This document shows positions 253 to 46,242 of a DNA stretch of 55,271 bases, piece by piece (within the stretch, counting starts at the first letter, position 1; every line of letters starts with the position of its first letter). The notes below the pieces were generated by a model. It worked only from the letters and a program-made list of their open reading frames with translations. It was not told the origin of the DNA and did not search any database. Origin of the DNA: Saccoglossus kowalevskii (taxonomy: Eukaryota > Hemichordata > Enteropneusta > Harrimaniidae); NCBI RefSeq assembly GCF_000003605.2, contig NW_003109983.1, positions 409,810 through 465,080 of the forward strand, given 5' to 3'. A program made the translations under genes and the position numbers.

Positions 253-320
253 GTGAACCGATTAACGTGACGTGTGCCATCGAAGTGGTCGCCATAGACA
301 CGCTATCAGAAAGAACCATG
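253..320 (+). CDS. Subunit A, 68-bp ligand-domain exon
   Basis: Acceptor ctacag and donor gtgagt bound 68 bases that read [20 protein letters not shown] plus Thr-Met. The exon starts with two bases of a split Gly codon and ends in phase 0. It corresponds to the conserved 68-bp exon of vertebrate GABA-A and glycine receptor genes (first extracellular beta strands). It is the leftmost exon visible. Confidence 0.9.
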
Positions 321-3300
321 GTGAGTTATAATGAACAACACAGTTTTTCTTGTTAGTAACCGAATAATCATAAAAAAAATGATGCGAATGCGCAAGCATC
401 CTTATTTTTTGTACGTATTATTAATTCAAAGCGGATGTTCAATGTTATACCAGCGATTAAATTGTATCATGCGTGCTAAAGTACAACATGGCGCTGTAAA
501 CAGCAAAGCCCGCGATTATATTTACGAGAACCCACGATCCACACATATTAAAGTTTTATTGTCGAAAACACGTAGATGAAAGCCAAACCAATTTTGAATA
601 ACTTGGACAAAACTCAAGTCGTTGTGGCGTTCACGAACTGACATTCCTCGTCGTTTAGCGGTTATGGTATTATCTGTCTCCAGTACAATATATCCTGTCG
701 TAGCTTGCTATTCGAGTTCATCTGAACACAACTAGGTAGTACGTAGTGTTCGGTTTCCAAAGTTAGCTCGGACGCAGAGGTAACATTAGTAAAATAATCG
801 TATTATACAAATTCAAATGAAAGCCAACCTTAGGGCTAGACGGGAAATGACGCAAGATTCTAGAATGAATTCCTTAGTAAATCTGGAAATTTATTTTGTA
901 ATATAGTCAATCGTCGAATAGATATTCCCGGCGTCCGATTCCGGTAATGTTATAACTAAGATACTGGAAACTCGATCACAAATGCATGTTCGGAACTGTT
1001 AGATTATGTTCGGCTCATTGACAACGAGGATATTTTGCGAATACCTAAGATGTATGTTGCATTTATTGCAGATGGTTTTGAGAAACGTCTTGGATTCTGT
1101 CTTCCAAGCCCATTCATTTATGTACTAATGTACCTGAGTGTGCATGTGTGTAAATGTAATGTTTCCCATGTATGTCGGCATTGTTATATGTCCAGTATAC
1201 TGGACGTGTCAGTGTTTTTTTTTGTTTTTTTTTCATTTGCAGTGCATATGTAATAATTAATTCAAATGTCAACGGCTTCAAACAACATTTTCCAAAAATA
1301 GAACTAAAGAACACACTTCAATGAGATGTATATTTCTAGTTGGACTCTGGGATTATTTATATAGCTTTGTTTGGTGTCTTAGGGTTGTTATGTGACATAT
1401 TTTATGTTCTGAATGTGTGAGCATCGTGGGTCCAAACGTGTTTTTGCCTGGTTTCTCGAGTGGTTCTGATATCTTCGAAATTACTGCGGCCCGCTGTAAA
1501 ACGAATCTTGTTGAATCCACGCACGTTGGGACATACTTCAATAGTGTTGGCAAATGAAATTTGAACACATGCAATTGAAATGATCAATAAGCTAGGTTGC
1601 AACATCGACTAGTACATAGTCGGGAGTTGGCTATTACAACGTATTACTGTATGTATTACGTATTTGACTTCAAAATATATTCTATATTTGACCGTTCGCT
1701 ATAGTTTTCAGCGAGTGGAGAATCGATGTGGAGTCGACAAAAATGACGATTGCCTCCGTAAAACGCACGTCTTAGAGGTTGTATTATCGGGTATATTTTA
1801 TTTGTAGATTTGGACGCATAAAGTAACATATTTCAGTTTACGGCCTAATTTACTGCGTATGTTAAAGACTTCAAATAATGTTACCAGAAAAAAACAACTT
1901 TGAAGTGCAATGGTCGCCGTGCTGCACGCGGTCGTATTTCGCGCAGACTTAACAATGTGCACTTGTTGTATACGTCGCATTGGATGGACCCGTATCGATC
2001 ACGACGATGTGCATCGGCTGTGACGCTATAAGTGTCACGTATAAATTGACAAATAACGGGCATACTGTCGACGTTTACACCTACTGAACGAGCATTATTG
2101 AGCGAACTCGCGAGACAATAACCAACCGATGCAACTGCTATCGTATCACGTGATATATTGCCGCGGAGCCTCTTTTTCGTGTAACTGCTCCACTCTAGAA
2201 AATAGATGATACTTTCTCGTTGTTGTACGAAATATGACAATGATCAATTAATTAATATTGATCCATTCCCATGGGAAATTATGTTCATGGTGCTTATATA
2301 TATGAAAACAAATTGGTTGGCTCGTTAACAATGTGGCGGCGTTTGATTGTCATCAAACTGCTTTTTTCTTGTGTTCAATGTCTGTAAATTATTAATTTTA
2401 ATCATCATAACGATGCTTCGGGACATTCTTTGCTGAAAGGAAGGGGTAAAAACCATTCTGATTGGCAGGGCGTTGACTTTAAATTTGTATTTCTACTTTG
2501 CAAAATATATAAGGTACCATTCTCTGAACAATACATAACGCCATATATTAGTTAAATTTGTGAATGGTTAACAACAAAAACTGCAGCTTAGGAAATCGAA
2601 CACCTTATTTTAAGCAAGATTTGTAAACAGTATTACAATGACTCAGTTAGTGGGCTTCGTTTATCAGTTACATTGTATATATGTCTATGTAAGGGGTCGC
2701 ATAGTAATATCGAAATGAAATATTGTTTAGCTAAAACAACAATATTTTTTTATCTTTTTCTGGGGTGATGTTTTCATATTCGCAAATTGGAATGCAATTT
2801 TAATCAGAAGTTCAAGTTTTCGTCCAATGAATATATCGCGGAACTGACACCGTAGATTTAGTGTGGAATTTGTTGTTAGACGTTACCTCGTATCTTTGGC
2901 TGAAACTTGTTATAACCAAGAGACTAATAATATGAGACGGGATGAAAGAGGGCGCTCACCCCCTACACCTCAATAATTGAGCGGGCTTTTTTCTTTTCAT
3001 AATCATTGTCTTAAAGTCGTTTCGTACTTTTAATTTCTGGTTATTGTTCTTTTTCTAAGTATTTTACACCGTATCTAATTGCAGTTCACGTATAAAAGAA
3101 TGAAACGACGTAGCTTAGGTGTTGGCGTGCTTTACGATGACTTCAGTTTCAACTTTCGCGACTTTTACTTTGGCTACTGATCGATAAAGGTGTACTGGGA
3201 CATAATAAACAAACAATTACCCAAGTGAAGTTCAATATTCAGTTTTAATAACCCGAAGATGATAATAAAAAGTTTTATTCTCCGTCACGTGACCGCATTC

Positions 3301-3504
3301 TGACCAATCCAGGTCACATGTACATAGTAAGCAATGAGATACTCTTCACTTTGACTATACAGTCTCAAAGGAAGCGAAGCATACTCAGAATTGTTGATTT
3401 GTTTTATTCTGTTTTTGCATTTCCACGCGAAGTGTAAACCGTTTAACTTGATAGTTATAACGATTTATGAACGATGGATTACTGGTCCGCATGTTACCAT
3501 GCTG

Positions 3505-3569
<65 letters not shown>

Positions 3570-6500
3570 TCCTGTCTATATGTTTACGAATGCATGAATC
3601 TTTCAAAATCTGTAGGACTATTCTATTAGTTTGTCTCTGTACTTGGAATGGAATGATCCACGCTTGACGCATAACAGCAGTGGCGAGATAGTATTTCAGA
3701 CTGTGGACATTATTGAGAAGGCCTGGCTTCCCGATGTGTATTTTGTTAACGAGAAGAACGGAATGTTTCACAACATAATCTCCGAAAATATTGCACTATA
3801 TGTCCATAAAAACGGTGATGTCATCTACAGTATGAGGTAGGCGCGTGTGCACAAATCGCTCTCGTGTTTTAGCACGCTGAATTTTGATTTTTGTAAATAA
3901 TATTATTAATATTTTGTCAAAATAGTTTCAAATGCATGAATGTCACATGATTTAGTAAACGCACACACAACTCGACCTGACGCAAGGCGCATGCGTAGTT
4001 AATTCGATCATTGAAACCAACAACAGCGATAACTCATATATTTACGTATTCATTTCATTTCATAGAAAATACCCAAACGGCACGAAAAGCCATCCACGTC
4101 GTTTATTACATGTCTTACTAGCATCCGGGTCTTGAAATATTAATTGTTATATCGTTTCCTTAGGTTGGGCTTGACGCTGACATGCTATATGCAATTGAAT
4201 TATTTTCCTATGGACCGACAGGAGTGCCCAATAACGATGAGAAGTTGTGAGTTTTTTTTTTCTTTTTATTATCACCATTGATCATCATGATGCTTGGTGG
4301 TCTTCAAATTAAATGTCATATGAATGTAAAAGCTTACGCGAAAAGAAATCGATAATTCCAGTAATATAATTCAAATAGATGTATACATAATACATTGCTA
4401 TTATCAATTTTTACTCCAAAGAACCGCTGCTATTGGGAACATATTCTAATCGATAAATTACAATTGATGTTTCAACTTTGACACGTGATTTAAAATAACA
4501 GTTTTTAATTATGTTTTGTAATATGTTTTTTTTTTTTTATTATATTTATCAGAAAGCAACAAGTTGCAACTTTTTTTTGCTCGCATAAAGCCGTCTTCTA
4601 TCCTCGGGGGCGGACATCCGGGCATTATCACCGCCTGGCAACCCGCGGCGGTGAAAACAAAGGCCCAAAACTCGCAGAAAACAGTACTTTGGGATGATTG
4701 TTTAGAGTCCCCTGAACAGTGCAACAAGATTAGCCCTACGTGTGTAACATATATAAATTTGGTTGTTCGGGATTACTTCAAAGTTGAGTTTGTGTTGTTT
4801 TCTCGAATTTTCACCGGCTCGACCGGCGTTCCACAGCAGCGCGCACATAGCCCATAGAAATGCATGGTACAGTGGTGCGCGTCTTAGCAACGTGGAACGT
4901 CTGTGACGTACTCCGCCCCCGAGGATATATACAAAACGAACGGATGACCAGATTTCTCCAACTTTTACAAAATGGTTTATTTTATGCTATGGTTTTCAAA
5001 ACTCATATACAAATATGTAATATTAAATATGCAATATGATAGAGAATGTGTAATTTTCAAAAAATTTATTTGATACTTGATGTTTCTTGTAGCGAACATC
5101 TCGCAATAATCGTCCTATGCATTGACACGCAGATCGCCGCAAATGCTGAATAGCGCCACCTATGAAACAATGGAATTCTCTAACACGCATGCGCCCAGTG
5201 CGCAATCACTGTGAATGCGAATCAATGGTTTTGATTCTTCACACGATTTGGTATACAGTATGGAGTATAGAACAACAATTGTAATAAATGTACGCTTTCT
5301 TTAACAGGTGAATTAATTACAAAATGTTGTGTTCATTTCAAATGTATCTTTCGTGTAATGTTGTACATTTCCTTTCTCAGACGCTTACAATAACAGAAAC
5401 ATACAACTAAAGTGGAAACACAGCGGTGGCGACCATGACGGTATGGAGTACAACGAACATATTAAAATGCCTCAATTTAACGTGATAAATATAACCACGA
5501 GCAGCGAAGAAAGCCAGCTCAGACTGGGTAGGGTTAATGTGACTGTTTCCACATTGTCAGTAAAATACGACGTAGACGTACTTGCATGATCGGGACAACT
5601 ACGGTAGTACAAATACCAGTGCCACCTAATATACGAGGGTAAAGTGGGGTTCACAATGGCCAAACACGATTATGTGTTGAAAAATAACGATGCATTTCAA
5701 AACGCATTTGACACAAGAAGTAAGCGGGTAGTTAATCTGAGTTATTTTATATGTTTTAACATTGACAGTAACTGGGAATAATGTATTATTATTTTTGTAG
5801 TACGCAATGTTTTACATTGCTTCGGTATTTTAAATACAATAAACTGATAATATTCATGTATGCCAACTCCTTTCCATTAATACAACAAACACGAACGCGA
5901 AATAAAATGTTTATTTTTTTAACCAATAAGTTAAAAAACTGTAAACTAAGCCACGAATAGTAAGTGCGCGATTTTTTGGATGAAATCTATGGCTGATGCT
6001 AGTCCCTTACCAATAAACAATATGATATATATTATTATGTGTTACACCGTGCGCTCTGTGTTTGGACGTTTTCTTTTTTAATAATAATAACACTCAGAAA
6101 TGGATGAGTATTTCAATTATTGAAACGTTATTGGGAGTGCCGTCTTTGACCTACTCTCATATTATCGGCCTCGTGGTCACCAAGAAGCCTCGGATCCGGT
6201 GCCAGTTTGGAATCGAACATCGTAGCATATAACGATTTTTGCTAAGACATTTAATCAGCACAATTCACTTATTAGTATACACATATGCTAATTTACCCAT
6301 ATGTTTTGTTTTTTAGGTAATTTCTCGACACTGATGGCGCGCTTCACATTGGAACGCGTCATGGGGTTCTACATCGTACACACGTTCCTGCCATCGTTCC
6401 TGCTCGTCATGTTGTCGTGGATCACTTTCTGGCTGCACGTCGATGCCACCCCCGCCAGGGCTTCTCTTGGGATCACTACCGTGCTCACTGTCACAACGCA

Positions 6501-9251
6501 AGTGTCGGCATCTCGGTTCACGTTACCCGAAGTCTCTTACCCTACGGTGAGTCAGGATTACTTTTCAATGCGGAAATCGCTATTCACTGACAACAAAACG
6601 GCGTTAGCTGCGCATTCCATTGGAATGCGCTGCGTAACTGCGCAAACAACCCTGGGACAAGAAACCAGTCCAAATATACGTAGTTTATACGTATGGTGGC
6701 GCTAGGATGAGACATCAAGATGTAAAGGAAAGGTTATCCCATGTTGTCGATAGTGGTGCTCTTTATATTGAATTGGCGTTCTTTTCCACACTTTGGATTA
6801 AAGGACGATGGTCGTCTCACAGCCAATGTTTCATGTAATCAGACAATCTGATTTACACGCGTTGTGTACATCGCTATGAGTCCCATATAATCGAGAGAAA
6901 AAAAAACGCGACACGACGACCACCACCCATTAAAGGGTTGCAGCTGTCACGCCTCGTCCTGTTCGATATGGGACTCAAAGCGACGTATAGGCGTGTAAAA
7001 TACATTGTTTATTTACATGAAATTCGAACACGCGCTGCGCGACGACCACCGTGCTTTAAATTTACTTACACGAAGACGTTCACATTGTGATGTGTTTATT
7101 CAATTTGCTTTTCTATATAGGCACTGGATATTTGGTTTTCTGGCTGTCTCATGTTTGTATTCAGCGCACTGTTGGAGTTTGCGTTGGTCAACTACATATA
7201 TCTACTGGATATAAGAGTTCGACCATCGAAGCAAACCGGAACGAAGTCCGTCTACGCGACAACGGTAAGCTTATGTCAACAATGCGACTGACGTGTTCAT
7301 TTTGACCGTATATAATTGACTGTGATTGCACTTACTCCATGCCCGAGAAAGTCATCTTCAGAGCACGTTTATTGTTCTAAATACCATAGTTAGATAGAAC
7401 AGCGGAACATATTAAGTCCACTACGCCGTAACCTTTGTTTATACATGACTTGCTATGGAGTAGAGAAATTCCTTTTCAGAAATACAACTTACGGCCGACT
7501 GTTGTACTTTGTGATACACATTTAGTGAAAATCTATGACAGGAATTATCCGTATCGTACGGAAGCTGATAATAAAAAAATTAGACACACTATGAACAAAT
7601 GTCGACATTTTAAAAGCACTACAAATTTATAATATTCAATTTGCAATCAAATGAATGACGAAAAGCAACTAAAAATCGGGGTGCCCGGGTTTACAGCGTA
7701 AAAGTTGATTGGCGACAAAAAGTGCATTACAAAAAATTACAATTGAAGTTGAGGCCCAGAATTAAAAAGTTAGTTCCGATATCCGACTTTTTACGTCGTA
7801 AAGAATATTTTAGCAAAGCTTTTGGTAACTATTGCTCTAAATGTGTTAGCCGCGACCAGCCTTGGGGGCCCTGGACAATTAAAGGAAACATCAATCCAAA
7901 CAACATAATGACCTCTAAAGAAAAAGCTCCACAAATGTAGGAGAATGCAATTTACAGTTTTTAATATCACTTTTCATTTTCTAGATATTCAACTTTTCAT
8001 CAGTATTATGTGTCAGCCATCTTGATTTTCAAGCAAATGATTATGGGTAAAGTATGACATCATAGAATCTGTTGTAAGACATTGAGAAAATGATTTCATC
8101 TATAACTTCAAAGGTTGAACTGCAAATTGGCTGAAAGTTTAGAAATTGGTAGCATACATATACTGGTACCATCCATGTTTATAAAATAGTTGTCATGGAA
8201 ACTTTTCAGTTTTATGTTTTTCTACCAAATGCTCAATTTTCTTATATTGTATACAATTTACCAATGTGAGTAGGTTATATAGGTGATATATTACATGTTG
8301 ACCACAAAAAGGGGACAAAAAGTGTCAATCTATATTTCACGACTAAAATATCGATTTTTATTTTTTTAACGTTGTTAGCAATATCTTCCCTTTATGTGTA
8401 TTTTTAACATTCTAATTTCCATTGCTATAATTATATACATGACTAATATGCACAACGACAATTTGACCTAATTCGCATCAGTATTTCTCAGGGTACAGAT
8501 GAAATAATTTTCTAAATTTTTGACAACAGATTCTATGATGTCATACTTTACCCACAATCCTTTGCTTGAGAATCAAGATGGCTGACTATATAATACTGAT
8601 ATAAAGTTGAATATCTAGAGAATGAAAAGTGATATAAAAAAACTGTAAATTGCATTCTCCTACATTTGTTGAGCTTTTTCTTTATGGTCATTATGTTGTT
8701 TGGATTGATGTTGCCTTTAAGACACGCACACATGTGTGTGTGGGGGTGGTGGCGAATGCGCTATACTAACAAAAATCTCATAATGTCGTTTTTAACCTTT
8801 GTTACATTACTTGCGTTGGGGTTTGGTGAATGTTACACGATTATATCACGCTTCATGTGCACAATAATCAGCGGTCACTACAGTTCGAATTTCGTGTAAA
8901 AAAGCAATTTATTTTACACGCGTGGTATACGTCGCGTCGTTGTCAATAAAATGCAAAAACTACATTACTTACTTGTTTTGTTTTATTCAGGAACCTTCTT
9001 CGATGGATGTCAGCAATAATTCATTTGTTCCAGGCGAATACAAACCCAAAACAGACATATTTGCTGTAAAGTACGATTCATCCAGTGCGGCCACCAAGAA
9101 CGGCATAGCCAACAATGCTGGTGAAACATTCAAGCCGTACGTTCAATACGCGCAACGAATTGACCGGATATCTAGAGTGGTATTTCCACTTCTGTTCACG
9201 TTTTTCAACGTTTTATTCTGGTCTATTTATCTGCACGAACCTACAAACTGA
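253..9251 (+). CDS. Cys-loop anion-channel subunit A (GABA-A/glycine-receptor-like), 5' partial
   Basis: Seven exons join in frame: 253-320, 3616-3836, 4164-4246, 5381-5527, 6317-6546, 7121-7264 and 8991-9251, giving 384 visible residues and a TGA stop. All introns have GT/AG ends. The order is beta-strand ligand domain, Cys-loop (two Cys separated by 13 residues, C104 and C118 of the visible part), M1 (about 190-212), M2 preceded by Pro-Ala-Arg (219-221), M3 (251-275), a short cytoplasmic loop of about 75 residues, and M4 (361-378). The Pro-Ala-Arg motif is the family mark of chloride selectivity, so the product should be a plasma-membrane inhibitory channel subunit. The M2 sequence is closest to glycine receptors, but loop C has no second Cys pair and loop D has Tyr (32) where Arg is usual. 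The signal-peptide exon and the next one lie left of the window. Family certain; ligand unknown. Confidence 0.96.
321..3615 (+). other. Intron of subunit A gene (3.3 kb)
   Basis: No coding sequence is recognised here. It contains a short family-B motif around 1956-1995 and a (TA)n tract just before the next exon. The open frames at 331-579 (+) and 1881-2240 (-) have no recognisable domain and I treat them as chance. Confidence 0.7.
3507..3566. repeat. (TA)30 microsatellite
   Basis: Sixty bases of perfect alternating A and T lie 49 bases before the acceptor of exon 3616-3836. The tract is likely length-polymorphic. It creates long spurious Ile-Tyr reading frames on both strands. Confidence 0.98.
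3616..3836 (+). CDS. Subunit A, loop D / loop A / loop E exon
   Basis: Its 221 bases, between tctgtag and gtaggc, begin with Asp-Tyr and end two bases into an Arg codon. It carries the loop D strand ending in [10 protein letters not shown] and the loop A stretch [14 protein letters not shown] possible N-glycosylation site (NSS) lies between them. The loop D position that is Arg in GABA-A alpha and GlyR alpha is Tyr here. Confidence 0.96.
4164..4246 (+). CDS. Subunit A, Cys-loop exon
   Basis: This 83-bp exon completes the split Arg codon and encodes the signature Cys-loop: Cys, 13 residues including Phe-Pro-Met-Asp, then Cys. It ends with Arg-Ser and one base of a Tyr codon. The Arg occupies the loop B place that is Glu in GABA-A beta and GlyR alpha. 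The 83-bp length is the same as in vertebrate family genes. Confidence 0.96.
4599..4927 (+). mobile_element. Family-A MITE, TA target duplication (copy 1)
   Basis: A 325-bp unit (4601-4925) starts TCCTCGGGGGCGGA and ends with its exact reverse complement, flanked by TA on both sides. It has no coding capacity. It lies in the 4247-5380 intron of the subunit A gene. An inverted copy is at 52317-52608 and relatives lie at about 13957 and 18694. TA duplication and short terminal inverted repeats suggest a Tc1/mariner-type non-autonomous element. Confidence 0.9.
5381..5527 (+). CDS. Subunit A, loop B / loop C exon
   Basis: The 147-bp exon starts after tttctcag and ends at donor gtaggg. It encodes [12 protein letters not shown], a charged Gly-rich stretch, and a loop C region ending ESQLRLG. 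No Cys pair is present in loop C, unlike glycine receptors. An Asn-Ile-Thr sequon is visible. Confidence 0.93.
6317..6546 (+). CDS. Subunit A, M1-M2 pore exon
   Basis: The 230-bp exon encodes GNFSTL, M1 with the conserved SWITFW, then [18 protein letters not shown] and SYPT at the end of the M2-M3 loop. M2 has 2' Ser, 6' Thr, 9' Leu and 19' Arg. Donor gtgagt follows. A typical gene has Tyr-Val-Lys at the end of this exon; here it is Tyr-Pro-Thr. Confidence 0.97.
6843..7080. mobile_element. Family-B palindromic repeat in intron of subunit A
   Basis: TTTACACGCGTTGTGTACAT at 6851 is mirrored near 6967-7001 by a reverse complement ending GCGTGTAAA, about 80 bases apart. Between the arms lies GCGACACGACGACC. 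Downstream the sequence continues with GCGCTGCGCGACGACC at 7031. A related stretch occurs in an intron of subunit B near 41450-41560. It is probably a small hairpin transposon or a composite of two; exact borders are not clear. Confidence 0.65.
7121..7264 (+). CDS. Subunit A, M3 exon
   Basis: The 144-bp exon is phase 0 at both ends (acceptor tatatag, donor gtaagc). It encodes [14 protein letters not shown] and LLEFALVNY, the conserved M3 helix, followed by a basic start of the cytoplasmic loop. Confidence 0.97.
7879..8720. mobile_element. Fold-back element with TTAA target sites (piggyBac-like MITE)
   Basis: The two ends, about 210 bp each (7883-8090 and 8515-8716), are reverse complements with few differences. 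The outermost bases are AGGAAACATCAATCC and its mirror, and both are flanked by TTAA. The middle, about 420 bp, is AT-rich and non-coding. It sits in the last intron of subunit A. TTAA duplication is the mark of piggyBac-type transposition; no transposase is present, so it is non-autonomous. Confidence 0.88.
8904..8940. repeat. Solitary family-B terminal motif
   Basis: TTTACACGCGTGGTATACGT resembles the ends of the 6851 element and stands alone about 50 bases before the terminal exon of subunit A. Related single motifs are near 1956 and 14922. Confidence 0.5.
8991..9251 (+). CDS. Subunit A, cytoplasmic loop and M4 terminal exon
   Basis: After ttattcag, 87 codons run to a TGA. The first part is a Ser/Asn-rich cytoplasmic loop. 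The last part is [15 protein letters not shown], the conserved pre-M4 Ile-Asp-Arg-Ile-Ser-Arg motif and M4, with a six-residue extracellular tail. The short tail is normal for the family. Confidence 0.96.
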   Translation, partial: EPSSMDVSNNSFVPGEYKPKTDIFAVKYDSSSAATKNGIANNAGETFKPYVQYAQRIDRISRVVFPLLFTFFNVLFWSIYLHEPTN

Positions 9252-9605: not shown

Positions 9606-9611
9606 AATAAA
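9606..9611 (+). terminator. Candidate poly(A) signal for subunit A
   Basis: AATAAA lies about 355 bases after the TGA stop at 9251 and is the first canonical signal downstream that I found. It is in a T/A-rich stretch, so the call is tentative. Confidence 0.4.
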
Positions 9612-27299: not shown

Positions 27300-27506
27300 A
27301 TTGGTGCGGTTCGATTCTGTTCGGTTTGGTTCGATTCGGTTCGATTCTGTTCGGTGTGGTTCGATTCTGCTCAGTTTGGCTAGATTTTGTTTGGTTTGGT
27401 TCGATTCTGTTCGGTTTGGCTCGATTCCGTTCGGTTTGGTTTGGTTTGTTTCCGTTCAATTTTGCTCGATTCCGTTCGGTTTGGTTCGATTCTGTTCGGT
27501 TTGGCC
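27300..27506. repeat. Minisatellite, about 20-bp unit
   Basis: About ten imperfect copies of a TTCGGTTTGGTTCGATTCTG-type unit. The lack of stops in several frames on both strands makes Asn/Arg/Thr/Glu/Pro-rich or Val/Arg/Phe-rich spurious proteins. Confidence 0.93.
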
Positions 27507-33170: not shown

Positions 33171-33345
33171 TAAGACTAAGTTGTCATTGTTTTAAATGAG
33201 CTGTTAGTTGTTCGTACTGATTTGGCATATGTTTTTACTATGTTGTCATTTACTCCAACTGAGCTGTCATTTGTTCTTACTAAGCTATCATTGTTTTTAA
33301 TGAGCTGTTAGTTGTTCGTGTTGAGCTGTCATTTGTTTGTACCAG
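33171..33345. repeat. 21-bp minisatellite, left part
   Basis: Imperfect copies of a GAGCTGTCATTTGTTCGTAC-type unit. It is the same array as at 34457-34785, now split by the element between. Confidence 0.88.
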
Positions 33346-33360: not shown

Positions 33361-34452
33361 TAGTCCCCGTTCGGACACAGTCCGAAAACGGGGACTTATG
33401 TTTTGACCTCCGTGTGTCCGTGCGTGCGTCTGTGCGTGCGTCCGGACCTGTATCTTAGAAATGCCTGGACCAATCACAATCAAACTTCACACATACATCA
33501 TACATGATATTATACATATACACGTCAATTTGTTTAACGATCTGATTCAAGATGGCTGAATGGCGGCTATTTTTGTGCTAAAAATCATCAAAATCAAGCA
33601 TTTCTCGGCTGTTTACACATGGATTTTGTTCAAACATGGTATATGCATTAGACATTATAGGAACTTGATGCACATCATTTTGTTTTATGATCTGATTCAA
33701 GATGGCCGAATGGCGGCCATTTTTGTGCTAACAATCATCAAAATCAAGCATTTCTCGGCTGTTTACAGATGGATTTTGTTCAAACTTTGTATATACAATA
33801 GACATTATGGGACCTTGTTTTTCAGATAAGATTTAAAATGGCCGACTGGCCAATGAATGTGGTTCTCGCGCCATATCTCTGACTTGCTTTCACTGATTAT
33901 GTTCAGATTTTAAATATTCATTATACATCATGTTATAGATAGACAGATATATTGGTTTGACGATCCCATTCAAAATGGCCAAATGGTGGCCTTTTTTGTG
34001 CTAAACAATCATCAAATATCAAGAATTTCTGGCATTTATGGATGGATTTCGTTCAAACTTGGTACATGTATTAGACATTACAGGTTCCAGATGCACATCA
34101 TTTATTTTTCAGATCGGATTCAAAATGGCTGACTGGCGGCCATTTTGTTTTAATGATTGGGCTTCTAGAGCCATATCTCTTAAATGCTTTGACTTATTAT
34201 ATTTAAATTTTATATATTCGTTATACATGTTATATATATACATGTATTCAAAATGGCTGATTTTGAATGCTGTTCCAGAGCAATATTTCTCAATATGGAC
34301 AAGTACTTGTTTGACGATCAGATACAAATGTCAATCATTTTAATGTTAAAAAATCATATTCTTGACATGGTTATATTCCAGCTATATTACTATAAAGAAA
34401 ACTAGATATCTTAAATTTGATAACTAACGGGGATTGTGCCATGCATGGCTTG
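33361..34452. mobile_element. GGGGAC-ended repetitive element within a minisatellite
   Basis: It starts TAGTCCCCGTTCGGACACAG, which folds on itself with the following TCCGAAAACGGGGACT. It continues with a GTGCGTGCG-rich stretch, then four or more imperfect units of about 150-270 bp, each with a GATTCAAGATGGCCGA / TGGCGGCCATTTT core. It ends AACGGGGATTGTGCC, so the two extremities share a short CCCCGTT/AACGGGG inverted repeat. No transposase is visible. Elements with these ends are, as I recall, common in marine invertebrate genomes. Confidence 0.75.
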
Positions 34453-34456
34453 TTTA

Positions 34457-34785
34457 ATATGTTGTTATTCGTTCTCAATGAGCTGTCATTTGCTCTCACG
34501 GAGATGTCATTTATTCGTATTAAACTGTCATTTGTTCAAACTAAGATGTCATGTGTTCTTACTAAGCTGTCATTGTTCTTAATGAGCTGTCATTTGTCCG
34601 TACTGAGCTGTCATTTGTTCGTGCTCATTTGATTTTCACTATTTTGTCATTTATTCTCATTGAGCTGTCATTTGTTCTCACTGGAATGACTTTTGCTCGT
34701 ACTGTTTCCTCGTGTGTTCGTATTAGACTGCCATTTGTTCGTACTAAGCTGTCATGCGTTTCACTAAGCTCTAATTGTCCTTAGA
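34457..34785. repeat. 21-bp minisatellite, right part
   Basis: About 14 imperfect units, for example GAGCTGTCATTTGTCCGTAC. The 21-bp period keeps one frame open (34417-34632), which is not a gene. Confidence 0.9.
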
Positions 34786-36858: not shown

Positions 36859-36870
36859 CCACTAGAGGGC
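36859..36870 (+). promoter_or_regulatory. Candidate CTCF-type site
   Basis: CCACTAGAGGGC fits the core of the CTCF consensus used across bilaterians. It lies about 490 bp before the first readable exon of subunit B. A single motif match is weak evidence. Confidence 0.3.
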
Positions 36871-37357: not shown

Positions 37358-37517
37358 ATGGTGTGTTTTTTTAATTTCAGTTTGGTGTCCTGTATTTGCC
37401 ATGTGATGTGCACGGTGGAAGAAGACGATGACCATCGTTTAATGAGCGAACATGACCGACTGATGTCGAAAGTTTTGAGCAAAGACAAAATTAGTACATT
37501 CAGACCACATCTGCACG
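37358..37517 (+). CDS. Subunit B, first readable exon (start uncertain)
   Basis: From ATG 37358 the frame reads MVCFFNFSLVSCICHVMC, a plausible signal peptide, then an acidic run and STFRPHLHG before donor gtaatg. The same DNA holds a good acceptor (tttttttaatttcag, ending 37380). The exon could therefore begin at 37381 and be spliced to a signal exon further left. The split Gly codon joins the 68-bp exon in frame either way. Confidence 0.75.
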
Positions 37518-40500
37518 GTAATGTAATCAAAATCATAATCATATGTGTTTAGCAAACAATTATTAGTTGCCGAGGCATCGGCTGCAATCATTAGCTATGA
37601 CAGAGTGCATTAAATCTTGTCTGAAAGAAAGCGTCATTGATATTTAGCTAACACAGCGCCGCGCCATCCCAAGTCGCCTCGCCTCGCGTCGTGTCACGCG
37701 TTGATAGAACGGCCGGCACGTAGACGGAAACATTTTGCGCCAACTTTGCTTTCACAAAAACATACTTTCAGGGCGAAAATCATTACACTTCCAAATGACA
37801 AGCCGTCGCGTGCTGCAATTAATGACAATTGACACGTTTAATTACAAGTCAGTCCCATTTCAGCAAACTTAGCGCTATGATACAATGTCAACACTCACTG
37901 CGCAGAAAGGAAAACGCTATGCGGTTACGAGCCTGTTAATATATGCTGTTGCAGTAACAAAATTGTCCCGCATTGGTGAATGCGTAAACGTTTTCCTGAC
38001 GATTCTATAATACATTTTCGATTCACAATTTTTTTTTTTTTACATCGCCATTCATCGTCGCCAGCCAAGGACCATTTATTCAGCCGAAGCCTCAACATTA
38101 ACCCTTCGCAGATTTCACTACAATTTAATGTATGTCGCACCCACTCAAGCGATTATAAGATTCACTCGGGCTCATTTGCATTTCCCAATAAGAACTCACG
38201 ATATAAACGACACAATACTTGGTAAATTTAAAATAGGGGAATATAGAAATCAACGAACTAAGAACGAGCTTACTAACCATCAATTAGTGCTGTATATGAG
38301 GGAAACGATGTGTTTGTTCACGGTTCCTAGAACTACAACTAGTAACCGTGGTTTGTTGCAACGAAGACCGGATCGGGCAAGTCGGTATGTTATCAGTCTC
38401 GACAGATTAATGAAACACGATTTGCACAAATGTTTAGACATTCCATCGTCTTCATTCAATTGCCCACAAGACATTTTCAACGTTGTAATAAAACATTTTG
38501 GAAACCTGTCAACGAATATAGACCTTTCTGTTCTTGACTCGCAGTGAATTAGTGCAAATCCTGCACGCCGCCATTGTTTTAATCTGTGATGACCCCAGAC
38601 GTTCAAATGTATGATACAGCAACGCTGATTGGTAGCGCCAGCTCATTGGCGCGCCCAATCAAATTACTTAATATACTGCAGTGAAATACAGCTTTTCCTA
38701 ACACGATCACGCACGGGTTCGTGGGCTGGTTATGAATGGCCGGCTTTAGCGAAACCGTGCGATTCGGACGATGATCGTCATTAGCCGGGACGCATTTACA
38801 AAGAAGCTAGTAAATACAGCACATTACCAACTCCAAATGATGTGTTATGGGTGCTATGTGTGTTAAGGTAGATCTATATCTTACTGACGTCATCCCAACG
38901 CGTCGTGTTTTGTGCTCAGTCTATTGGCTGTTTGTGTTGGACTTTGTGTTAAAAACTGAGTAATTGTGAAATATTGAAGTTACCTATCATAATAGCGTGA
39001 AATAACTGAAAACAAACTCCCAGCAAAGCGTTGCTCTGGTAATAGGGCGTTGCTGTTGCTTAAATTGCCGTTGCGTGAACTCCTGAAACTTCCTCGAAAA
39101 CTACCCGGACGAAAACGATGTTGTTTGCATAAATCAATGGTTAATAAATAGGAATACTTTTCTGGGAATTTGTTTGAAAATTTACCACGTATTTATTTCA
39201 CAATTGACACATATATAAACCAAAAGCAACACATATCATGTTTCCTTTGCCCTTTTCCCTGCCATTTGTTTTTTTCTGAATTAATGAGGCATTAGATGGT
39301 TATATTAAATTTTGTTTCTGGGTTACCTCACATGAATGTAATAGAAAATTTATCGCGTTTTGCCAACGATGTGAAGATGTACGTACAATGTATCTACATC
39401 GAGATGTTTATCAACAATTTTTACAATTCGGATTTTTTTTTTTCAAATTTGGGATTGCGAAGGTCGCTGTAAATAATCAAAATCGAACAGTAATTAATTG
39501 TAGGGCTAATCTGTGCATATTAAGTAACGAGAAAATACTATATATTTATATGACTTTGGGTTCCTCACGTTTGAAAGAAAGCGTAACGAGCTCGATGTTC
39601 GGAAGACCAATCAGAGAACAGAAGATCCGAGGATGATTAGAGTGTGCACATGCGCAATTATGACATCAGTGTCTTTATTTTTTTTATCCTGTAGGTGATC
39701 CAGTTGTTGTGACAGTATATGTGTCTGTGGACAGTTTTGGATCTATTTCAGCCATGTCGATGGTGAGAAGATTTAGTTCATTTGCATAATTAACACATTT
39801 TTTTCATTATTTCCCATTTCATAGTACTCCTGACTGGGAGTGTTGCGATTCTAGTCGTTTGTTTACTGTGTTACGCGATAGTGTCAGTCCCGTAAACAAA
39901 TTAGGGGGCACTATGCAATTGATTCGAGTGTTTCAGCTTCAGTTTAGTACTGAATGCTGGTGTAGCATCCAGGTTACCTTTACAAATCATAAATATAACA
40001 TTTTTGTGTGTATTAATGTACACACTGATGAAGGGGAACACAATATGCAATTGTGGCATATTGATATTCTTGCCTAAGCGGGAGAGTGGGCTCCTGAGTG
40101 CGCATGCGGCAGACGCCCATGAGCCTTTGCGTTTCATCGCGCGTTGTCCCAATTTCCGCGCGTGCGCAGGTGACGACAGAACGAGAAACTATATTACACT
40201 CGGGAGGGAGTATAGAAAACACAGTGAACGACTGGTTGTGTAATTTTGGCTAATTTGGCGTTTAAGATAAGTCGTATATTTGATTGCATTGCCGAACCTG
40301 AGTCATGCATATATACAAAACACATGACATTGTGAAATTTGTTCGTGTTTTGAGAGAAAAACCCCTGAGAAAACAAGACAAGAGAATTCAGAAACTTTTA
40401 TTAATAATAATTCCCTATGCATCTATGAATACTTTTCATAATTACCGATTACACAAGAATATTACAGAAAAAACATAATTTGCTATATTCTATATATTTT

Positions 40501-43500
40501 TGCCTATTGTTTGTCTTATGTACGAAGAATAACTTTAATAAATATGATTTTACTGCACTGTATTTTTCTGCATAAAAACAAAGGAATTTCACAATACCGA
40601 AAATGGAAAGTCTTTATCGCAGTAATACCTTTACTGGTGTAAACGGATCAAACGTATATGTGTGTTACCGTTCTAGGAATACACTATGAATGTTGATGTG
40701 TATCTTGAGTGGGAAGACATCCGATTGGTTCACAACACAACGGATCTGGTATTTCAGACGGTCGAATCAATTAAACAATTCTGGCTGCCAGATATCTACT
40801 TCGTGAACGAGAAGAACGGAGAGTTGCACGTTGTTCTTTCTGAGAACATTGCGTTGGTGCTTCAGCAATCTGGTACTATAACATATAAGACAAGGTGAGT
40901 GAGCCCTCTATAGACACTAGATGAAAATGGCCTCCGAAATCTCATTCAAATACTATGAATATGATAAATACCGTTCCATCAACCTATAACTGTGCTGTGA
41001 GTAATGAAATGGCGATAACAAGATGTGTCGTTTAGTCGCTTGTTGACAACACTGATAAACAAACCTCTGGCGATTTAGTTACAATTTAGTCAGTGGAACA
41101 GATTGGTGTGGGATGTCGACATTTTTTATTCCAAGTCAAGTGATTACATTTTGACACTAAAATAGAAAAAAATCCTGAAAAGGATGAAATGTCGATAGAA
41201 CATGTTGCATATTGGGAAATACCCTATTGATCTTACGTTGACCGCCATTTGGCATGGACGTTTCGTAGTTGTAGGTATCAAGACTGCAATCCGAAAGTCT
41301 TTTTAACAGAAAAAGTAATTCACTCACGCCGATCAACTCGGAAACAGCCCCAATATCATGTCAGTTATGTTACCCTGATAAAACATACGGCACAATTCAT
41401 ACATGAACGACTATATTTATGGGCGGTGGTTTTCGCCACGCGTTGTTTTTGATATGGTCTGTTCGAGATATAGAACGCGTGTAAACTACATTGTTTACTT
41501 ACAAGATCTTACAAAGAATTAAAAAGCGCTACGCGACGACCAACACGGTACAAGCAGTATGTCGCATACGACTTATTTACCACTTCCGTGTTACTGAGAA
41601 TGTTCTTGAACCGTACTGTGTCTGGGTGGAATATTCTAGATTTTTTTTAGAAACTGGTTGAATAGATAATAGAACACTGTATGAGGCAATAGAAGGTAGT
41701 GGAACATTCTAGAAATGTGTAGTAAGTTCCAGACTCATTGTGTATGTTGATGTAATGGTCTATTTATAGACAGTGGGGGGTATATATAGGGGAGTTGTTC
41801 AGCACTGAGATCGGATCGGAGGTCTAGTTGAATTGTGTTGGAGTTTAAGTATCTAGTTATTGGAGGTTTGGAGTTTTACCGCGTTATTGTACTTGATGTT
41901 TGCAGAGTATAATAATACCAGTGCCAGTTGAAACCTCATCTGTTGGCTCCGTGTTCGTATGTTATCATCGCGCCAGGGAAGTCTTTATGTTACTGTTGCC
42001 ATTTTGGTATTTGAACCATCACACCTGTACTATACCAATTACGGTAATATTACGTTGCGTGTGACACAGTAGCTAAAGCGGTTTCCGAACTTTTCATAAA
42101 CCCATCAAATCGTGGAGATTTTCTGATTTGTCATTTTTATCCTGCAGTTAATTCAACCTGGGAAACTTACAATGGATTCACTACGTTTTCTTTTCAGATT
42201 GACTCTTGTATTAACATGTTATATGGAGCTCCATTTATTTCCCCTCGACATTCAGCACTGTCCTCTACTGATACGTAGCTGTAAGTGTGCATATCATTTG
42301 CATAATATACGATATATATAAATGGTCGCCGAGATCTCGGTGAAATCAAGTGAACCGCGAAACGTGTTTTTCATCGCGTCCACTGTTCCCTTGGCTTATG
42401 TCACCACGGTATTTGAAATAGTGGGCGCGATAACGGAAAAGAATAAAACGCTAATCGAAGAAATACAGATCTCGACGAGATTCTGACGGCCATTTATGTC
42501 TAACCGCCATATCAATATTGTCGATATGTTTAATGCATGGCATATATTTATGATAATTTTATGCAAGTGGTGAAAAAAATTGTTTGGGTTTCCAGAAGAT
42601 GTTTGCAAATGTTGTATTTAAGCACTTTGCCCCGTTTATATTCATTTCAATACTTTGCGTGTTTTGTAAATAATTCTGAATTTGACAACATTTATCATTA
42701 TTAATTCACTATCTACTGAATTTACTTGTTCATTTCAACGTTTTACACTCATGTCGCGTTTTGCCACAGACGCATACAATGACAAGCACGTGACTCTGAA
42801 GTGGCGAACGTACAATCCAGTAATGATAAACCCAAAGATCCAGTTACCTCAGTATGACCTGCCAACGGGGGACCCTGAGACAAGCATGAACTTGGAAGAA
42901 CTCCCTCCGCTGGGTAAGAAAATGCGTCACTTTGTGGCGATATTACTATTAAATTATTGTTCATCCCATATTATTGTCGCTATTTTAACGCAATAATTGT
43001 GATATAATCCACTCAAATATCATGTTTGATATAACGAATTTTGAAGGCTGAAACTCCTTGTGACTGTGTTGCAGGTAATTTCTCAACACTACTAGTCGAG
43101 TTCCGACTTGATAGATCACTGGGGTTCTTCATTGTGAATATGTTTCTGCCATCGGTAATACTCGTCATCATTTCTTGGATATCGTTCTGGCTACACGTGG
43201 ACGCCACTCCAGCTAGGGCGTCACTGGGCATCACATCGGTACTCACCCTGGTCACCCAGAGCGGAACTATCAGATTCACGGTGCCAGCTCTCTCCTACCC
43301 TACGGTAAGACGGATGGCTTTAAAAAAAACGATTGCCGGGTTTTAATGTCCCGTTATATCTGTGTCTATCAATGCCATTTATTTAAAATCGGTCACATTG
43401 GTCCCACAATTATATGGTTAAATTGAATACATATTGACCGGCAACGAATGGTCACCACAACATTAATCAACGCCGTGAAAAATCAATAATATATTAGGGT

Positions 43501-46242
43501 GTCAGCTGCTTTTCCGTATTCTAGCGTAAAAGCTGCGTAGAAACACGCAACGTTGGTTCGACTCACTACACTCAACACCTTTCCAGGAAGAAGATCGTAA
43601 TACAGCTAATCATTTATAAGATATATATGGTGTTCTTAATCTGTTGTAAATATGTATCAGATAGTAGGTCAGCTATTTCCCTTCCTGTCAAATATATAAA
43701 ACTTGGAATTTCGTCGTCTGTTTTACTTCTGAACAAAGATGTCACCGCAAACGCATGCGCAGAGACGAATAGTTTGATCATTCTCAGTGACATCACTATG
43801 GGAATAGTTCACCATGACTGTGCAATATGCGCTCAGTGACTGTGCACGCCCCCTGACGGTAGCGAGAGCCTACTGTATAGTCTACAATTTGTTGATGTGA
43901 CTATATCATATATTATCTTGATATAAAAAACAGGATAGTTCACTGGTTCCACGACTCAATGTAGGTCATCAAATATTATAGATAATTTTTATTCAGTGCG
44001 AAATCTCGCATAATGCGTGAAATGATTGGGAAAAACGTCTTCTGCAAAATGTCTTTAATTATAGTTCAATATCAAAATGCCGAGCTCACGTGAGGGGTAT
44101 ATGACCTTCCAGCCTGTACTTACATCAGCAAAATTGACCATCATCGAATGTGTATGTCACATAATTGGTCGTGGAAATACACAGAAAATACTTTCGCGTT
44201 TGTCGAATTTGTTTTGACGTCACTACGGTGCTCTGGCCTCTGTTTGTCCCTTTGTATGCTTGATTTCACGCATAAGGCGGGATCTCGCAGTGAACAGAAC
44301 ATGGTTCATTGAGAAGCAGCCGCCAGGGCCACTATGAAGACGCATATTTGACAGGATGTATCTGATGGTGAGAAACCTCCAAAGATAAAATTATGTTTAT
44401 TTATGTTTGTTTTGTTATTTCGACTTTACAATTCATTTTATTCCTAACTTATGTGTATGCAAGTTCCCTATCATGAATCTCTCATTTGTTCATGGCGTTT
44501 TCTTCATGATGGTGTTATTTCTATGTCTCACTCTCAGGCAATTGACATTTGGTTCTCCGTGTGCATATTATTCGTGTTCGCCGCGCTGATAGAATTCGCC
44601 CTGGTCAACTACTTCTACATCATTAGCGTGAGAGCGAGTAAGCGAGAAATAGTACGAGGTATACCCGATGACACTGCTACGGTATGTATAGGTCATTTTT
44701 ATTTGCATAATCCGAGGATCTTGAAACTACGGTCTTCGTGATGTATCAAGACTTGTGCGATTAACCACGTCTGCTTGGAGATTTAAAAACGGCGGTTTCT
44801 ATTACAGTAACATTATCCGGGGTCTGTCGCACGGTCTAAGCATTTTATTAGGATATGTTTCTCAAAATATGTCACTGTAACACACAGAAAATGCTATTTC
44901 ATGGTGCCATGAGACAGTAGCGGAGTGACGGACGGGAGTGAACTGAACAGTGTTTATGTAATATATTACTTATTCAGATTATAGTAAGAACATAGCAACA
45001 GTCATAGGTGTTTTGTGCCAGGCAGCCAATAACACGAAAAACGAAAAACTCGCAGAACCCGGTCTACGTTCGACACGCGATACGTAACTTACGTCGACTT
45101 AAGAAAAACACTGGCTGAGGCATATTGGCTCAACCATCAACTTTAATTTACTTAAAAGTTGACAGGTTCGCAATGTGTGTTAAATTTTAGGTCATTCAGG
45201 TTGTTATATTGACATTTTTACGTTGTTAAATTCGAAATTTGGCGACTGGTTCCAACATAGAGCTAAAATAGTCTAGCTACATGTTCCAACAAGTTTATTT
45301 GTATGTATATTTATGTATCATGACATTTTACATGGCCAAGAATTATTAACTATTACTGATCGAATGAAATAGTGTACACAAGACAGAAATATATGGTCAG
45401 CCGAAATATCGCCAATCTACCGTCGGAGTCAGCGCTAGTGTGCGCACTATCCAGTGGCCGCCATATCCACGCATCTTGTAAGAAATCAAGAATATATTCG
45501 TTTCAATTACCGGGGCGCAACTTACGCCTACGTGAGTTGTTTTTTTAGTGAGAATACGGTAAAAGAACTACACTTCCATTTGTATATGCGATGTTTGCGC
45601 ATTTGACATCACGACATGTATTCAATTGGCACCAGAAAGGTAATTTTGTCCCAGTATTCGATGGATTTGAATACTAGTAGGTGAAATCAAACTTTTTGTC
45701 TTGAAAGTCACGCCCTCGAGCGATTCTCTGACGTAAATGCTTTAATGCCTTCAGTGGTGCGCAATACTGCTAGGATTTGTTACTTTCTTTCTTCAAAACC
45801 ATACACAGTTATACTATTCACACCAATTATTATTATTATTCACGATATTATTCACACAAATCTACGTCATGATTCACATAAACACAGGCATAAATTCACA
45901 TAAATATTCTTTTTTCAAAAAATAACCCAATCAATGTTCCTGTGTACTCCCCAGGAGACAGAAATTGATACACCAACTGACGGCAAGACGAAATTTTCTG
46001 GCGAGGCTGAGGAGTCTAATAATACAGGAGAGTTGAGGCTGCGAATGAAAGGATCGAAAGAATACGCAATGAGCATGTCAACAAAGTCGCTGCACGACAA
46101 GCATAAGATAAAAAGCCGCTTCTACTTGAAGACTGCAATGAAGATTGATAGATATTCGAGGCTGGTATTCCCAGTTGTCTTTATTTTATTCACCACTGCG
46201 TTTACAATCTATTTCTATGCATTACAAGACAGAATCAAGTAG
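37358..46242 (+). CDS. Cys-loop anion-channel subunit B (GABA-A/glycine-receptor-like), apparently complete
   Basis: Eight exons join in frame: 37358-37517, 39695-39762, 40677-40894, 42198-42280, 42770-42913, 43075-43304, 44538-44681 and 45955-46242. They give 1335 bases and 444 residues, normal for the family. The order is a hydrophobic Cys-rich leader (1-18), an acidic linker, the ligand domain, the Cys-loop (C156 and C170, 13 apart), M1 (241-263), Pro-Ala-Arg (270-272) and M2, M3 (304-326), a charged cytoplasmic loop of about 85 residues, and M4 (420-439). It should form part of a plasma-membrane chloride channel. It has the same intron phases as subunit A and 51 of 76 identical residues in the pore exon by hand count, so the two arose by tandem duplication. 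Loop D has Tyr85 for Arg and loop B has Arg175 for Glu, so classical GABA or glycine binding is doubtful. The start is uncertain: ATG 37358 may instead be intronic, with a missed upstream signal exon. Confidence 0.95.
38360..38574 (-). pseudogene. CxxC...CxxC zinc-finger gene fragment (ZAD-like), frameshifted
   Basis: On the minus strand, ATGGCGGCG at 38574 opens a frame with CRIC within the first seven residues and stops after 21 codons. A one-base shift then gives KCFITTLKM, an Asp-rich turn and HLCKSC at about 38429-38412. Two CxxC pairs separated by about 55 residues recall the treble-clef N-terminal zinc domains of large invertebrate gene families. It lies in the first intron of subunit B, on the opposite strand. 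The shift may be a sequencing error or real decay. Confidence 0.45.
38617..38800. promoter_or_regulatory. CCAAT-box palindrome and shared downstream block
   Basis: CTGATTGG-AGCGCC and GGCGCGCCCAATCA form an inverted repeat with CCAAT boxes facing outwards. The following ACCGTGCGATTCGGACGATG resembles ACCGTCCGATTCCGACGATG near 54742. The block lies directly upstream of the minus-strand zinc-finger start at 38574, so it may be its promoter, perhaps bidirectional. Confidence 0.5.
39695..39762 (+). CDS. Subunit B, 68-bp ligand-domain exon
   Basis: It is bounded by cctgtag and gtgaga and reads DPVVVTVYVSVDSFGSISAM plus Ser-Met. Length and phase equal those of subunit A's 253-320 exon. The DSFGSIS stretch is closer to the family norm than in subunit A. 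Confidence 0.95.
40677..40894 (+). CDS. Subunit B, loop D / loop A / loop E exon
   Basis: The 218-bp exon (acceptor ttctag, donor gtgagt) begins EYTMNVDVYLEW, which aligns without gaps to GABA-A alpha loop D with Tyr at the Arg position. It also carries [13 protein letters not shown] (loop A) and an Asn-Thr-Thr sequon. It is one codon shorter than in subunit A. Confidence 0.97.
41440..41580. repeat. Family-B related repeat in intron of subunit B
   Basis: GAACGCGTGTAAACTACATTG and GCGCTACGCGACGACCAAC match the 6985-7050 region in subunit A's intron in order and spacing. It may be an independent insertion or a remnant of the gene duplication, but the two lie in different introns. Confidence 0.6.
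41590..42000 (+). mobile_element. LTR-like segment with heat-shock elements and TATA box
   Basis: Perfect three-unit heat-shock elements occur at 41598-41610 (GAATGTTCTTGAA) and 41702-41714 (GAACATTCTAGAA), with a partial one at 41629. A TATATATA box at 41781-41788 follows and a possible initiator lies near 41801. About 200 bases on, TTTTGGTATTTGAACC at 42002 could be a tRNA primer site. This order fits the U3-R-U5 of a retrotransposon LTR. Borders and target duplication could not be fixed. It lies in the 40895-42197 intron of subunit B. Confidence 0.4.
42198..42280 (+). CDS. Subunit B, Cys-loop exon
   Basis: The 83-bp exon encodes Cys, 13 residues including Phe-Pro-Leu-Asp, then Cys, ending Ile-Arg-Ser and one base of Tyr. 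Acceptor ttttcag; donor gtaagt. Confidence 0.97.
42770..42913 (+). CDS. Subunit B, loop B / loop C exon
   Basis: The 144-bp exon encodes YAYNDKHVTLKW and a Pro-rich loop C segment with no Cys pair. It starts after gccacag and ends at gtaaga. Loop C differs strongly from subunit A, so this is where the two subunits diverge most in the binding region. Confidence 0.94.
43075..43304 (+). CDS. Subunit B, M1-M2 pore exon
   Basis: The 230-bp exon encodes GNFSTL, M1 with [24 protein letters not shown] and a loop ending SYPT. M2 has 2' Ser, 6' Thr, 9' Leu, 12' Val, 15' Ser and 19' Arg. Subunit A differs at 7', 11', 12' and 15'-18'. Confidence 0.97.
44538..44681 (+). CDS. Subunit B, M3 exon
   Basis: The 144-bp exon, phase 0 at both ends, encodes AIDIWFSVCILFVF and IEFALVNYFY (M3) and the basic start of the cytoplasmic loop. 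Acceptor ctctcag; donor gtatgt. Confidence 0.97.
45010..45065. repeat. Possible family-A fragment
   Basis: GCCAGGCAGCC and AAAAACTCGCAGAA resemble the internal part of the 4601 element in the same order. Short and degenerate. Confidence 0.3.
45718..45739 (+). repeat. 22-bp motif shared with 36643-36664
   Basis: GAGCGATTCTCTGACGTAAA plus TG, 21 of 22 bases identical to the upstream copy. It lies in the last intron of subunit B. Function unknown. Confidence 0.45.
45955..46242 (+). CDS. Subunit B, cytoplasmic loop and M4 terminal exon
   Basis: After ctccccag, 95 codons and TAG follow. An acidic then Lys/Ser-rich loop leads to MKIDRYSRLVFPVVF, the conserved pre-M4 motif and M4. The many Ser and Thr beside Lys and Arg could be kinase sites. 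Confidence 0.96.
   Translation, partial: ETEIDTPTDGKTKFSGEAEESNNTGELRLRMKGSKEYAMSMSTKSLHDKHKIKSRFYLKTAMKIDRYSRLVFPVVFILFTTAFTIYFYALQDRIK

What the first reader, a model, noticed from the sequence alone, without database searches (positions are those of the whole stretch)
253..46242. Tandem pair of anion-type Cys-loop receptors lacking the usual amino-acid-binding residues
Both genes have intact Cys-loops and Pro-Ala-Arg pore entries. In both, the loop D Arg of GABA-A alpha and GlyR alpha is Tyr, the loop B Glu of GABA-A beta and GlyR alpha is Arg, and loop C has no second Cys pair. The same changes in both copies suggest an old, constrained subfamily that senses a different ligand, or that acts only with other subunits. 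GluCl channels also lack the loop B Glu, so that residue alone does not exclude an amino-acid ligand.
Basis: partly seen in the sequence, partly recalled or inferred. Interest (0 to 1): 0.78.

Follow-up and report, generated by a model that had tools for sequence, protein, structure and literature searches.

The report
Acorn-worm orphan chloride-channel receptor pair
Two neighbouring genes, most likely from an acorn worm, code for chloride-channel receptors related to the glycine receptor whose usual transmitter-binding amino acids have been replaced, so they probably answer to some other chemical or work only together with other subunits.

Summary
Genes A (253-9251) and B (39695-46242) are intact, GT-AG-spliced, anion-type Cys-loop subunits. 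In both, loop D Arg65 is Tyr, loop B Glu157 is Arg, loop C Thr204 is Leu, and loop C lacks a Cys pair. The genome's mitochondrial contig has Saccoglossus hallmarks, so the host is very probably that acorn worm. A and B end a cluster of six genes on one contig. With a seventh gene they form a clade (98/94) that replaces loop B Glu in 7 of 7 and loop D Arg in 6 of 6 read; in the other genes sampled Glu is kept in 12 of 12 and loop D Arg in 20 of 28. Placing A and B alone among GABA-A/RDL or GlyR is rejected (p 4e-4, 1e-4); the clade's deeper position is unresolved. Siblings carry other replacements, so the pocket diversified; it is not one constrained subfamily. Loss of GABA/glycine gating is inferred, not tested. 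Human gamma-2 also lacks both residues and is a partner subunit, so that rival is serious. Comparable cnidarian radiations are published.

The parts
253..320 (+). Gene A, first visible coding exon (start of the extracellular domain)
   Evidence: AG/GT borders, frame, match to GlyR exon
3616..3836 (+). Gene A exon with loop D (SLYLEW: Ser63, Tyr65, Glu67) and loop A ([13 protein letters not shown])
4164..4246 (+). Gene A exon with the Cys-loop and the start of loop B (Arg157)
5381..5527 (+). Gene A exon with the rest of loop B (AYNN) and loop C without a Cys pair
6317..6546 (+). Gene A exon with M1 and M2, pore entry PAR
   Evidence: Pfam PF02932 9e-16 on the open frame
7121..7264 (+). Gene A exon with M3
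   Evidence: PF02932 over the spliced protein
8991..9251 (+). Gene A last exon with M4 and stop
   Evidence: PF02932 9e-5 on the open frame, below the curated cut-off
39695..39762 (+). Gene B, first visible coding exon
40677..40894 (+). Gene B exon with loop D (DVYLEW: Asp63, Tyr65, Glu67) and loop A
42198..42280 (+). Gene B exon with the Cys-loop and the start of loop B (Arg157)
42770..42913 (+). Gene B exon with the rest of loop B and loop C without a Cys pair
43075..43304 (+). Gene B exon with M1 and M2, pore entry PAR
   Evidence: PF02932 1.7e-13 on the open frame
44538..44681 (+). Gene B exon with M3
   Evidence: PF02932 1e-5 on the open frame, just below the curated cut-off
45955..46242 (+). 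Gene B last exon with M4 and stop
   Evidence: PF02932 8.7e-7 on the open frame

Best explanation
A and B are working subunits of an anion-selective pentameric channel, from a lineage-specific, clustered radiation of glycine-receptor-like genes in an acorn worm (very probably Saccoglossus). Their transmitter pocket has been rebuilt: the negative residue that holds the amine of glycine or GABA (loop B Glu) is now Arg; the positive residue that holds the carboxylate (loop D Arg) is now Tyr, with a Glu two positions on and, in B, an Asp two positions before; the loop C Thr is Leu. Gating would go as in other Cys-loop receptors: ligand closes loop C, the Cys-loop and M2-M3 loop pass this to M2, chloride flows. 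The trigger is probably not GABA or glycine; with Arg on the principal face and acidic residues on the complementary face I expect a ligand whose negative group faces loop B. Shown here: gene models, residues, clade, pore motif. Inferred: pentamer, anion flux, loss of GABA/glycine gating, a different ligand.
For: Intact domains, Cys-loop, PAR and splice borders. Three contacts of amino-acid agonists replaced in both genes; in print, loop D Arg to Ala abolishes or drastically cuts agonist response in GluCl, GlyR and GABA-A. 7-gene clade 98/94, also 98/94 with pocket columns removed; A+B rejected inside GlyR and GABA-A/RDL. Purifying pattern by codon position. Box aromatics at 99, 159 and 207, Glu103 and Arg131 kept, so the site is rebuilt rather than erased. 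Precedent: in a cnidarian radiation 0 of 7 receptors tested answered GABA or glycine, 3 answered glutamate and 4 none of the ligands tried on them.
Against: No functional, expression or structural data. Human gamma-2 lacks both residues and is a partner subunit (recalled). Loops C and E are diverged between A and B (6 of 16 and 3 of 8 identical), and pocket identity (6 of 10) is not above that of some sibling pairs. The clade as a whole is not excluded from GlyR (p 0.088) or GABA-A/RDL (p 0.12). N-terminal exons not found.
Confidence: 0.5

Rival explanations
1. A and B are partner subunits that do not bind transmitter at their own sites. They assemble with canonical glycine-like or GABA-like subunits of the same animal and change kinetics, location or modulation, as GABA-A gamma-2 does.
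For: Human gamma-2 is the one reference of ten that lacks both loop D Arg and loop B Glu (Ala, Ser; recalled sequence). Canonical-looking partners exist in the genome: C184, C4571, and RDL-like C4198. Loop C, which caps the principal site, is diverged and lacks Tyr202 and Thr204.
Against: Replacements are charged or bulky and opposite in sign across the interface, not merely small; box aromatics are kept. Several siblings with other pockets suggest diversification of binding.
Confidence: 0.3
2. A and B still bind an amino acid such as glutamate through other residues, as GluCls of several lineages do with differently placed basic residues.
For: Glutamate recognition arose several times with Arg in loop G or loop A, or Lys in loop C. 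A and B have a basic residue at loop B, and B also Lys129.
Against: The verified GluCls discussed there keep loop D Arg and nearly all the loop C Thr or the aromatic motif; loop D Arg to Ala abolished glutamate response. A and B lack both. The loop B position in GluCls is small and uncharged (Ala).
Confidence: 0.12
3. One or both genes are decaying copies with no function.
For: N-terminal exons not found for either. B has a longer branch than A (0.94 against 0.13), and 1 of 7 relative-rate tests is significant (p 0.009).
Against: No stop, frameshift or broken splice border in seven exons of either gene. Third codon positions differ most, second least. Six of seven relative-rate tests not significant.
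Confidence: 0.08

Closest known systems
Vertebrate glycine receptor alpha subunits (GlyR alpha)
   Same: Best PDB matches; same intron positions by recall of the vertebrate genes; PAR pore entry; Cys-loop; Glu103 and Arg131 kept.
   Different: Arg65, Glu157, Tyr202, Thr204 and the loop C Cys pair replaced; A+B alone with GlyR rejected.
Cnidarian (Nematostella) radiation of GABA-A/GlyR-like receptors (PMC13335744; abstract, parts of Results and of Discussion read)
   Same: Lineage-specific expansion of anion-type receptors with altered pockets; 0 of 7 tested answered GABA or glycine, 3 answered glutamate.
   Different: Different phylum; the three nvGluCls keep loop D Arg. Their sequences were not at hand for comparison.
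GABA-A gamma-2
   Same: Lacks both loop D Arg and loop B Glu (recalled sequence).
   Different: Ala and Ser in place of Tyr and Arg; A+B with GABA-A/RDL rejected.
HisCl1 and nematode amine-gated chloride channels (ACC-1, MOD-1, LGC-55)
   Same: No loop D Arg (PMC4006026 passages).
   Different: HisCl1 keeps loop B Glu (recalled sequence); nematode sequences not compared.
Orphan non-neuronal chloride channels of insects (CG7589, CG6927, CG11340; PMC4938653, passages)
   Same: Duplicated anion-type subunits without an assigned transmitter in that paper.
   Different: Insect branch; sequences not at hand, relation not tested.

Membership tests
Cys-loop (pentameric ligand-gated) receptors | Ligand-binding domain, 13-residue Cys-loop, four membrane segments | tested here: met
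   PF02931 and PF02932 above cut-off in both; Cys-loop and M1-M4 read. Signal peptide not seen.
Anion-selective (GABA-A/GlyR-type) branch | Pro-Ala-Arg at the M2 entry | tested here: met
   PAR in both. Ion selectivity itself was not measured.
Glycine receptor | Loop D Arg, loop B Glu, loop C Thr | tested here: not met
   Tyr, Arg, Leu in both
Glycine receptor | Second Cys pair in loop C | tested here: not met
   Loop C of A and B holds no Cys
Glycine receptor | Clade membership | tested here: inconclusive
   A+B alone with GlyR rejected (p 1.3e-4); the 7-gene clade with GlyR not rejected (p 0.088)
GABA-A receptor | Clade membership | tested here: inconclusive
   A+B alone with GABA-A/RDL rejected (p 4.4e-4); 7-gene clade with them not rejected (p 0.12)
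GluCl | Loop D Arg with loop C Thr | tested here: not met
   Both replaced; clade with GluCl not rejected (p 0.30)
HisCl | Clade membership | tested here: inconclusive
   7-gene clade with HisCl1 (recalled, long branch) not rejected (p 0.17)
pHCl, insect group I, nematode amine-gated channels | Clade membership | not testable with these tools
   No sequences at hand
All of the above | Gating by the family's ligand | not testable with these tools
   Needs expression and recording

The most novel reading that the evidence does not exclude
A and B carry a charge-swapped transmitter pocket (Arg on the principal face, Tyr with Glu and, in B, Asp on the complementary face) that binds a transmitter in the opposite orientation to glycine and GABA, or binds an anionic or other ligand new to Cys-loop receptors. 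On this reading they belong to an acorn-worm radiation in which each paralog group has its own charge pattern and so its own ligand.
Probability: 0.2. Interest if true: 0.68.

Novelty: new variant of a known kind. Interest (0 to 1): 0.45.

Why it matters
Fast inhibition in vertebrates uses two ligands, GABA and glycine. If hemichordates, deuterostomes like us, radiated many glycine-like receptors with altered pocket charges, that narrow use would be a vertebrate simplification rather than the deuterostome rule. The clade offers natural variants at the residues that decide ligand choice (65: Tyr, His, Lys; 157: Arg, Leu, Ser), next to canonical-looking paralogs in the same animal, so ligand switching could be tested directly.

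Tried and rejected
N-terminal exon search for A and B by motif, by scored splice scan and by tblastn between upstream regions: nothing convincing. The scored scan also found nothing in its two comparison loci, which hold little upstream DNA, so it is a weak test; the top scores upstream of A (29) exceeded its shuffles (12-14), but those shuffles are depressed by the N-rich sequence and the peptides lack the motif.

A faster-evolving B as a sign of decay: the branch is longer, but only 1 of 7 relative-rate tests is significant; dropped.

A 14-gene union of the 7-gene clade with the C346 group, which would make loop D Arg loss a single event: 87/83, but not resolved when the pocket columns are removed or split codons corrected; not claimed. 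The fewest changes on the tree are 4 for loop D Arg and 3 for loop B Glu.

Stronger constraint on the pocket than elsewhere: A/B pocket identity is 6 of 10; the six sibling pairs with nine or ten positions read range from 1 of 10 to 6 of 9 (counting Phe at 159 of C3285). No case.

Literature: searches on Saccoglossus or hemichordate Cys-loop receptors listed no paper whose title or shown abstract treats them. Of the papers listed there I opened only PMC5377815 (passages). One search listed 20 of 302. Most subscription journals are not held.
Full report
WHAT IS THERE. The window holds most of two genes on the + strand, 30 kb apart. Exons were delimited by reading frame and AG/GT borders. Both genes show seven exons with the same phases and similar lengths; the spliced proteins are 383 residues (A) and 390 residues (B) from the first visible exon to the stop. 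Pfam finds the ligand-binding and membrane domains in both. The closest solved structures are glycine receptor alpha subunits, then a GABA receptor beta chain (9she, near-identical to recalled Drosophila RDL) and GABA-A beta. As a yardstick, recalled C. elegans GluCl, Drosophila RDL and Drosophila HisCl1 score 331, 335 and 275 bits against their best GlyR alpha chain, while A scores 282 and B 245 without their N-terminal ends. A and B are about as far from GlyR as other named classes are.

THE RESIDUES. GlyR numbering is recalled; columns are, with split-codon letters. Position 63/65/67: Phe/Arg/Gln in GlyR alpha1, Ser/Tyr/Glu in A, Asp/Tyr/Glu in B. Position 157: Glu in GlyR, Arg in both. Position 204: Thr, Leu in both. 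Position 202: Tyr, Leu in A, Pro in B. Position 129: Ser, Ser in A, Lys in B. Loop C is gappy, so 202 and 204 depend on the alignment. Kept in both: aromatics at 99, 159 and 207, Glu103, Arg131, PAR, 9' Leu, 19' Arg. Lys276 of the M2-M3 loop is Glu in A, Ala in B, and replaced in 7 of 7 of the clade (by Arg in one); it is also replaced in 4 of 18 other genome rows and in GluCl, HisCl1 and rho1.

WHICH ANIMAL. The genome search answered on the fifth try: the window is the end of contig C451 in a 572 Mb assembly of 4830 contigs. Its one COX1 match was read. TGA stands at Trp positions, ATA at Ile positions, AAA at Lys positions, AGA at a Ser position of NAD1, AGG is absent from the three genes read, and COX1 lies inverted between NAD1 and COX2. 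PMC3121625 (passages) gives for Saccoglossus kowalevskii AUA = Ile, AAA = Lys, AGA = Ser, no AGG, and an inversion of COX1 against the Balanoglossus order; Balanoglossus lacks AAA, echinoderms read it as Asn, Rhabdopleura reads AGG as Lys. The host is therefore very probably Saccoglossus. Which positions are conserved is my recall.

THE FAMILY IN THIS GENOME. PF02932 gives 142 exon matches (all Cys-loop types, lower bound). Protein A gives 108 matches, many at the same two exons, in clusters on C451, C346, C2442, C2750, C4609, C4668 and C693. On C451 six genes lie between 172 and 456 kb; A and B are the last two. From fetched DNA I read loop D in 34 genes (a 35th exon call was dropped because its loop D was not read) and the start of loop B in 19. 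Loop D 65: Arg 20 of 34, Ser 4, His 3, Tyr 2 (A and B only), Lys, Thr, Ile, Pro, Val 1 each. Loop B 157: Glu 12 of 19, Leu 4, Arg 2 (A and B only), Ser 1. The sample was led by similarity to A, so it is not the whole repertoire. C184 and C4571 look like canonical glycine receptors (loop C CTKQYNTG, Glu157, Thr204; Arg65 read in C184 only), and C4198 groups with RDL, 97/92.

PLACEMENT. Maximum-likelihood trees of 32 to 35 rows (217-223 columns) put A and B together (100/99 to 100/100) in a clade with four other C451 genes and one on C3285: 99/97, 99/95, 98/94 without the pocket columns, 98/94 with corrected split codons. Holding A+B alone with GlyR costs 33.6 log units (p 1.3e-4), with GABA-A/RDL 30.2 (p 4.4e-4). 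The whole clade is not excluded from GlyR (p 0.088) or GABA-A/RDL (p 0.12), nor from GluCl (p 0.30) or HisCl1 (p 0.17) (placeholder split codons). So 'outside the well-characterised clades' holds for the pair, but the deeper root of the clade is open. No pHCl, insect group I, nematode amine-gated or cnidarian sequences were at hand. Most reference rows are recalled sequences.

WHAT THE CHANGES MEAN. In GlyR and GABA-A the ligand amine sits near loop B Glu and the aromatic box, and its carboxylate meets loop D Arg and loop C Thr (PMC4006026 passages; PMC4338433 Results; PMC13335744). A and B replace all three. Loop D Arg is also missing in HisCl1, ACC-1, MOD-1 and LGC-55, whose ligands carry no negative charge. 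GluCls lack loop B Glu but use loop D Arg and loop C Thr. Human gamma-2 (recalled) lacks both Arg and Glu and works with alpha and beta subunits (recalled). The pair fits no simple amino-acid site; a new ligand and a partner role both remain. I lean to a new ligand because the replacements are charged or bulky and opposite in sign across the interface, and because box aromatics and most gating parts are kept. In the cnidarian radiation 4 of 7 receptors tested answered none of the ligands tried on them. The invertebrate orphan Alpo4, of the nicotinic branch, binds a steroid detergent at this site (PMC10338036 passages), which shows that unusual ligands fit Cys-loop pockets.

CONSTRAINT. A and B are 52% identical over 285 columns and 175 of 365 aligned codons encode the same residue. 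Differences by codon position (155, 100, 240) show purifying selection averaged over both lineages; silent sites are saturated. Loop A is 12 of 13 identical, but loops C and E only 6 of 16 and 3 of 8, and the pocket as a whole 6 of 10, within the range of sibling pairs. The clade's pockets look diversified, with A and B sharing one inherited version.

KNOWN OR NEW. An anion-type Cys-loop receptor of unknown ligand in a lineage-specific expansion is known from cnidarians (PMC13335744), lophotrochozoans (many predicted subunits without the usual motif, PMC4338433) and insects (PMC4938653 passages). No paper listed treats a hemichordate one in its title or shown abstract. Tyr65 with Arg157 was seen only in A and B among the sequences compared here.

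LIMITS.

Noticed in passing
window 39780-39790, 42296-42306, 44701-44711: The exact 11-mer ATTTGCATAAT lies 15-19 bases after the 5' splice site in 3 of the 6 introns of gene B and after none of the six donors of gene A. Within one mismatch the window has 14 copies against 5.2 expected; TTTGCATAA occurs 3 times within 80 bases of 87 donors, 0.22 expected. Splicing signal or repeat end; unexplained.
   Followed up: partly
C346 cluster, loci L027-L037: Eight of eight genes read on C346 have lost loop D Arg (Thr, Ile, Ser, Pro or Val) and carry Asp at position 129, while loop B Glu is kept in the seven where it was read: an acidic pocket that would suit an amine. A second orphan group in the same genome.
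   Followed up: partly
window 54721-55197 (-): Open frame matching the kynureninase C-terminal domain (PF22580, E 1.9e-7) at the contig end.
   Followed up: no
window 33521-33817: Two 150-base tandem copies, about 90% alike, near arrays of a 21-base unit (33175-33337, 34481-34622).
   Followed up: no
window 27303-27504: Degenerate GGTTC-rich array, period 20 (72% matches), giving long open frames by repetition.
   Followed up: no
L020-L023 and L062, M2 entry: The five siblings of A and B have Ala-Ala-Arg instead of Pro-Ala-Arg at the pore entry, as recalled GABA-A beta-3 and GlyR beta do.
   Followed up: no
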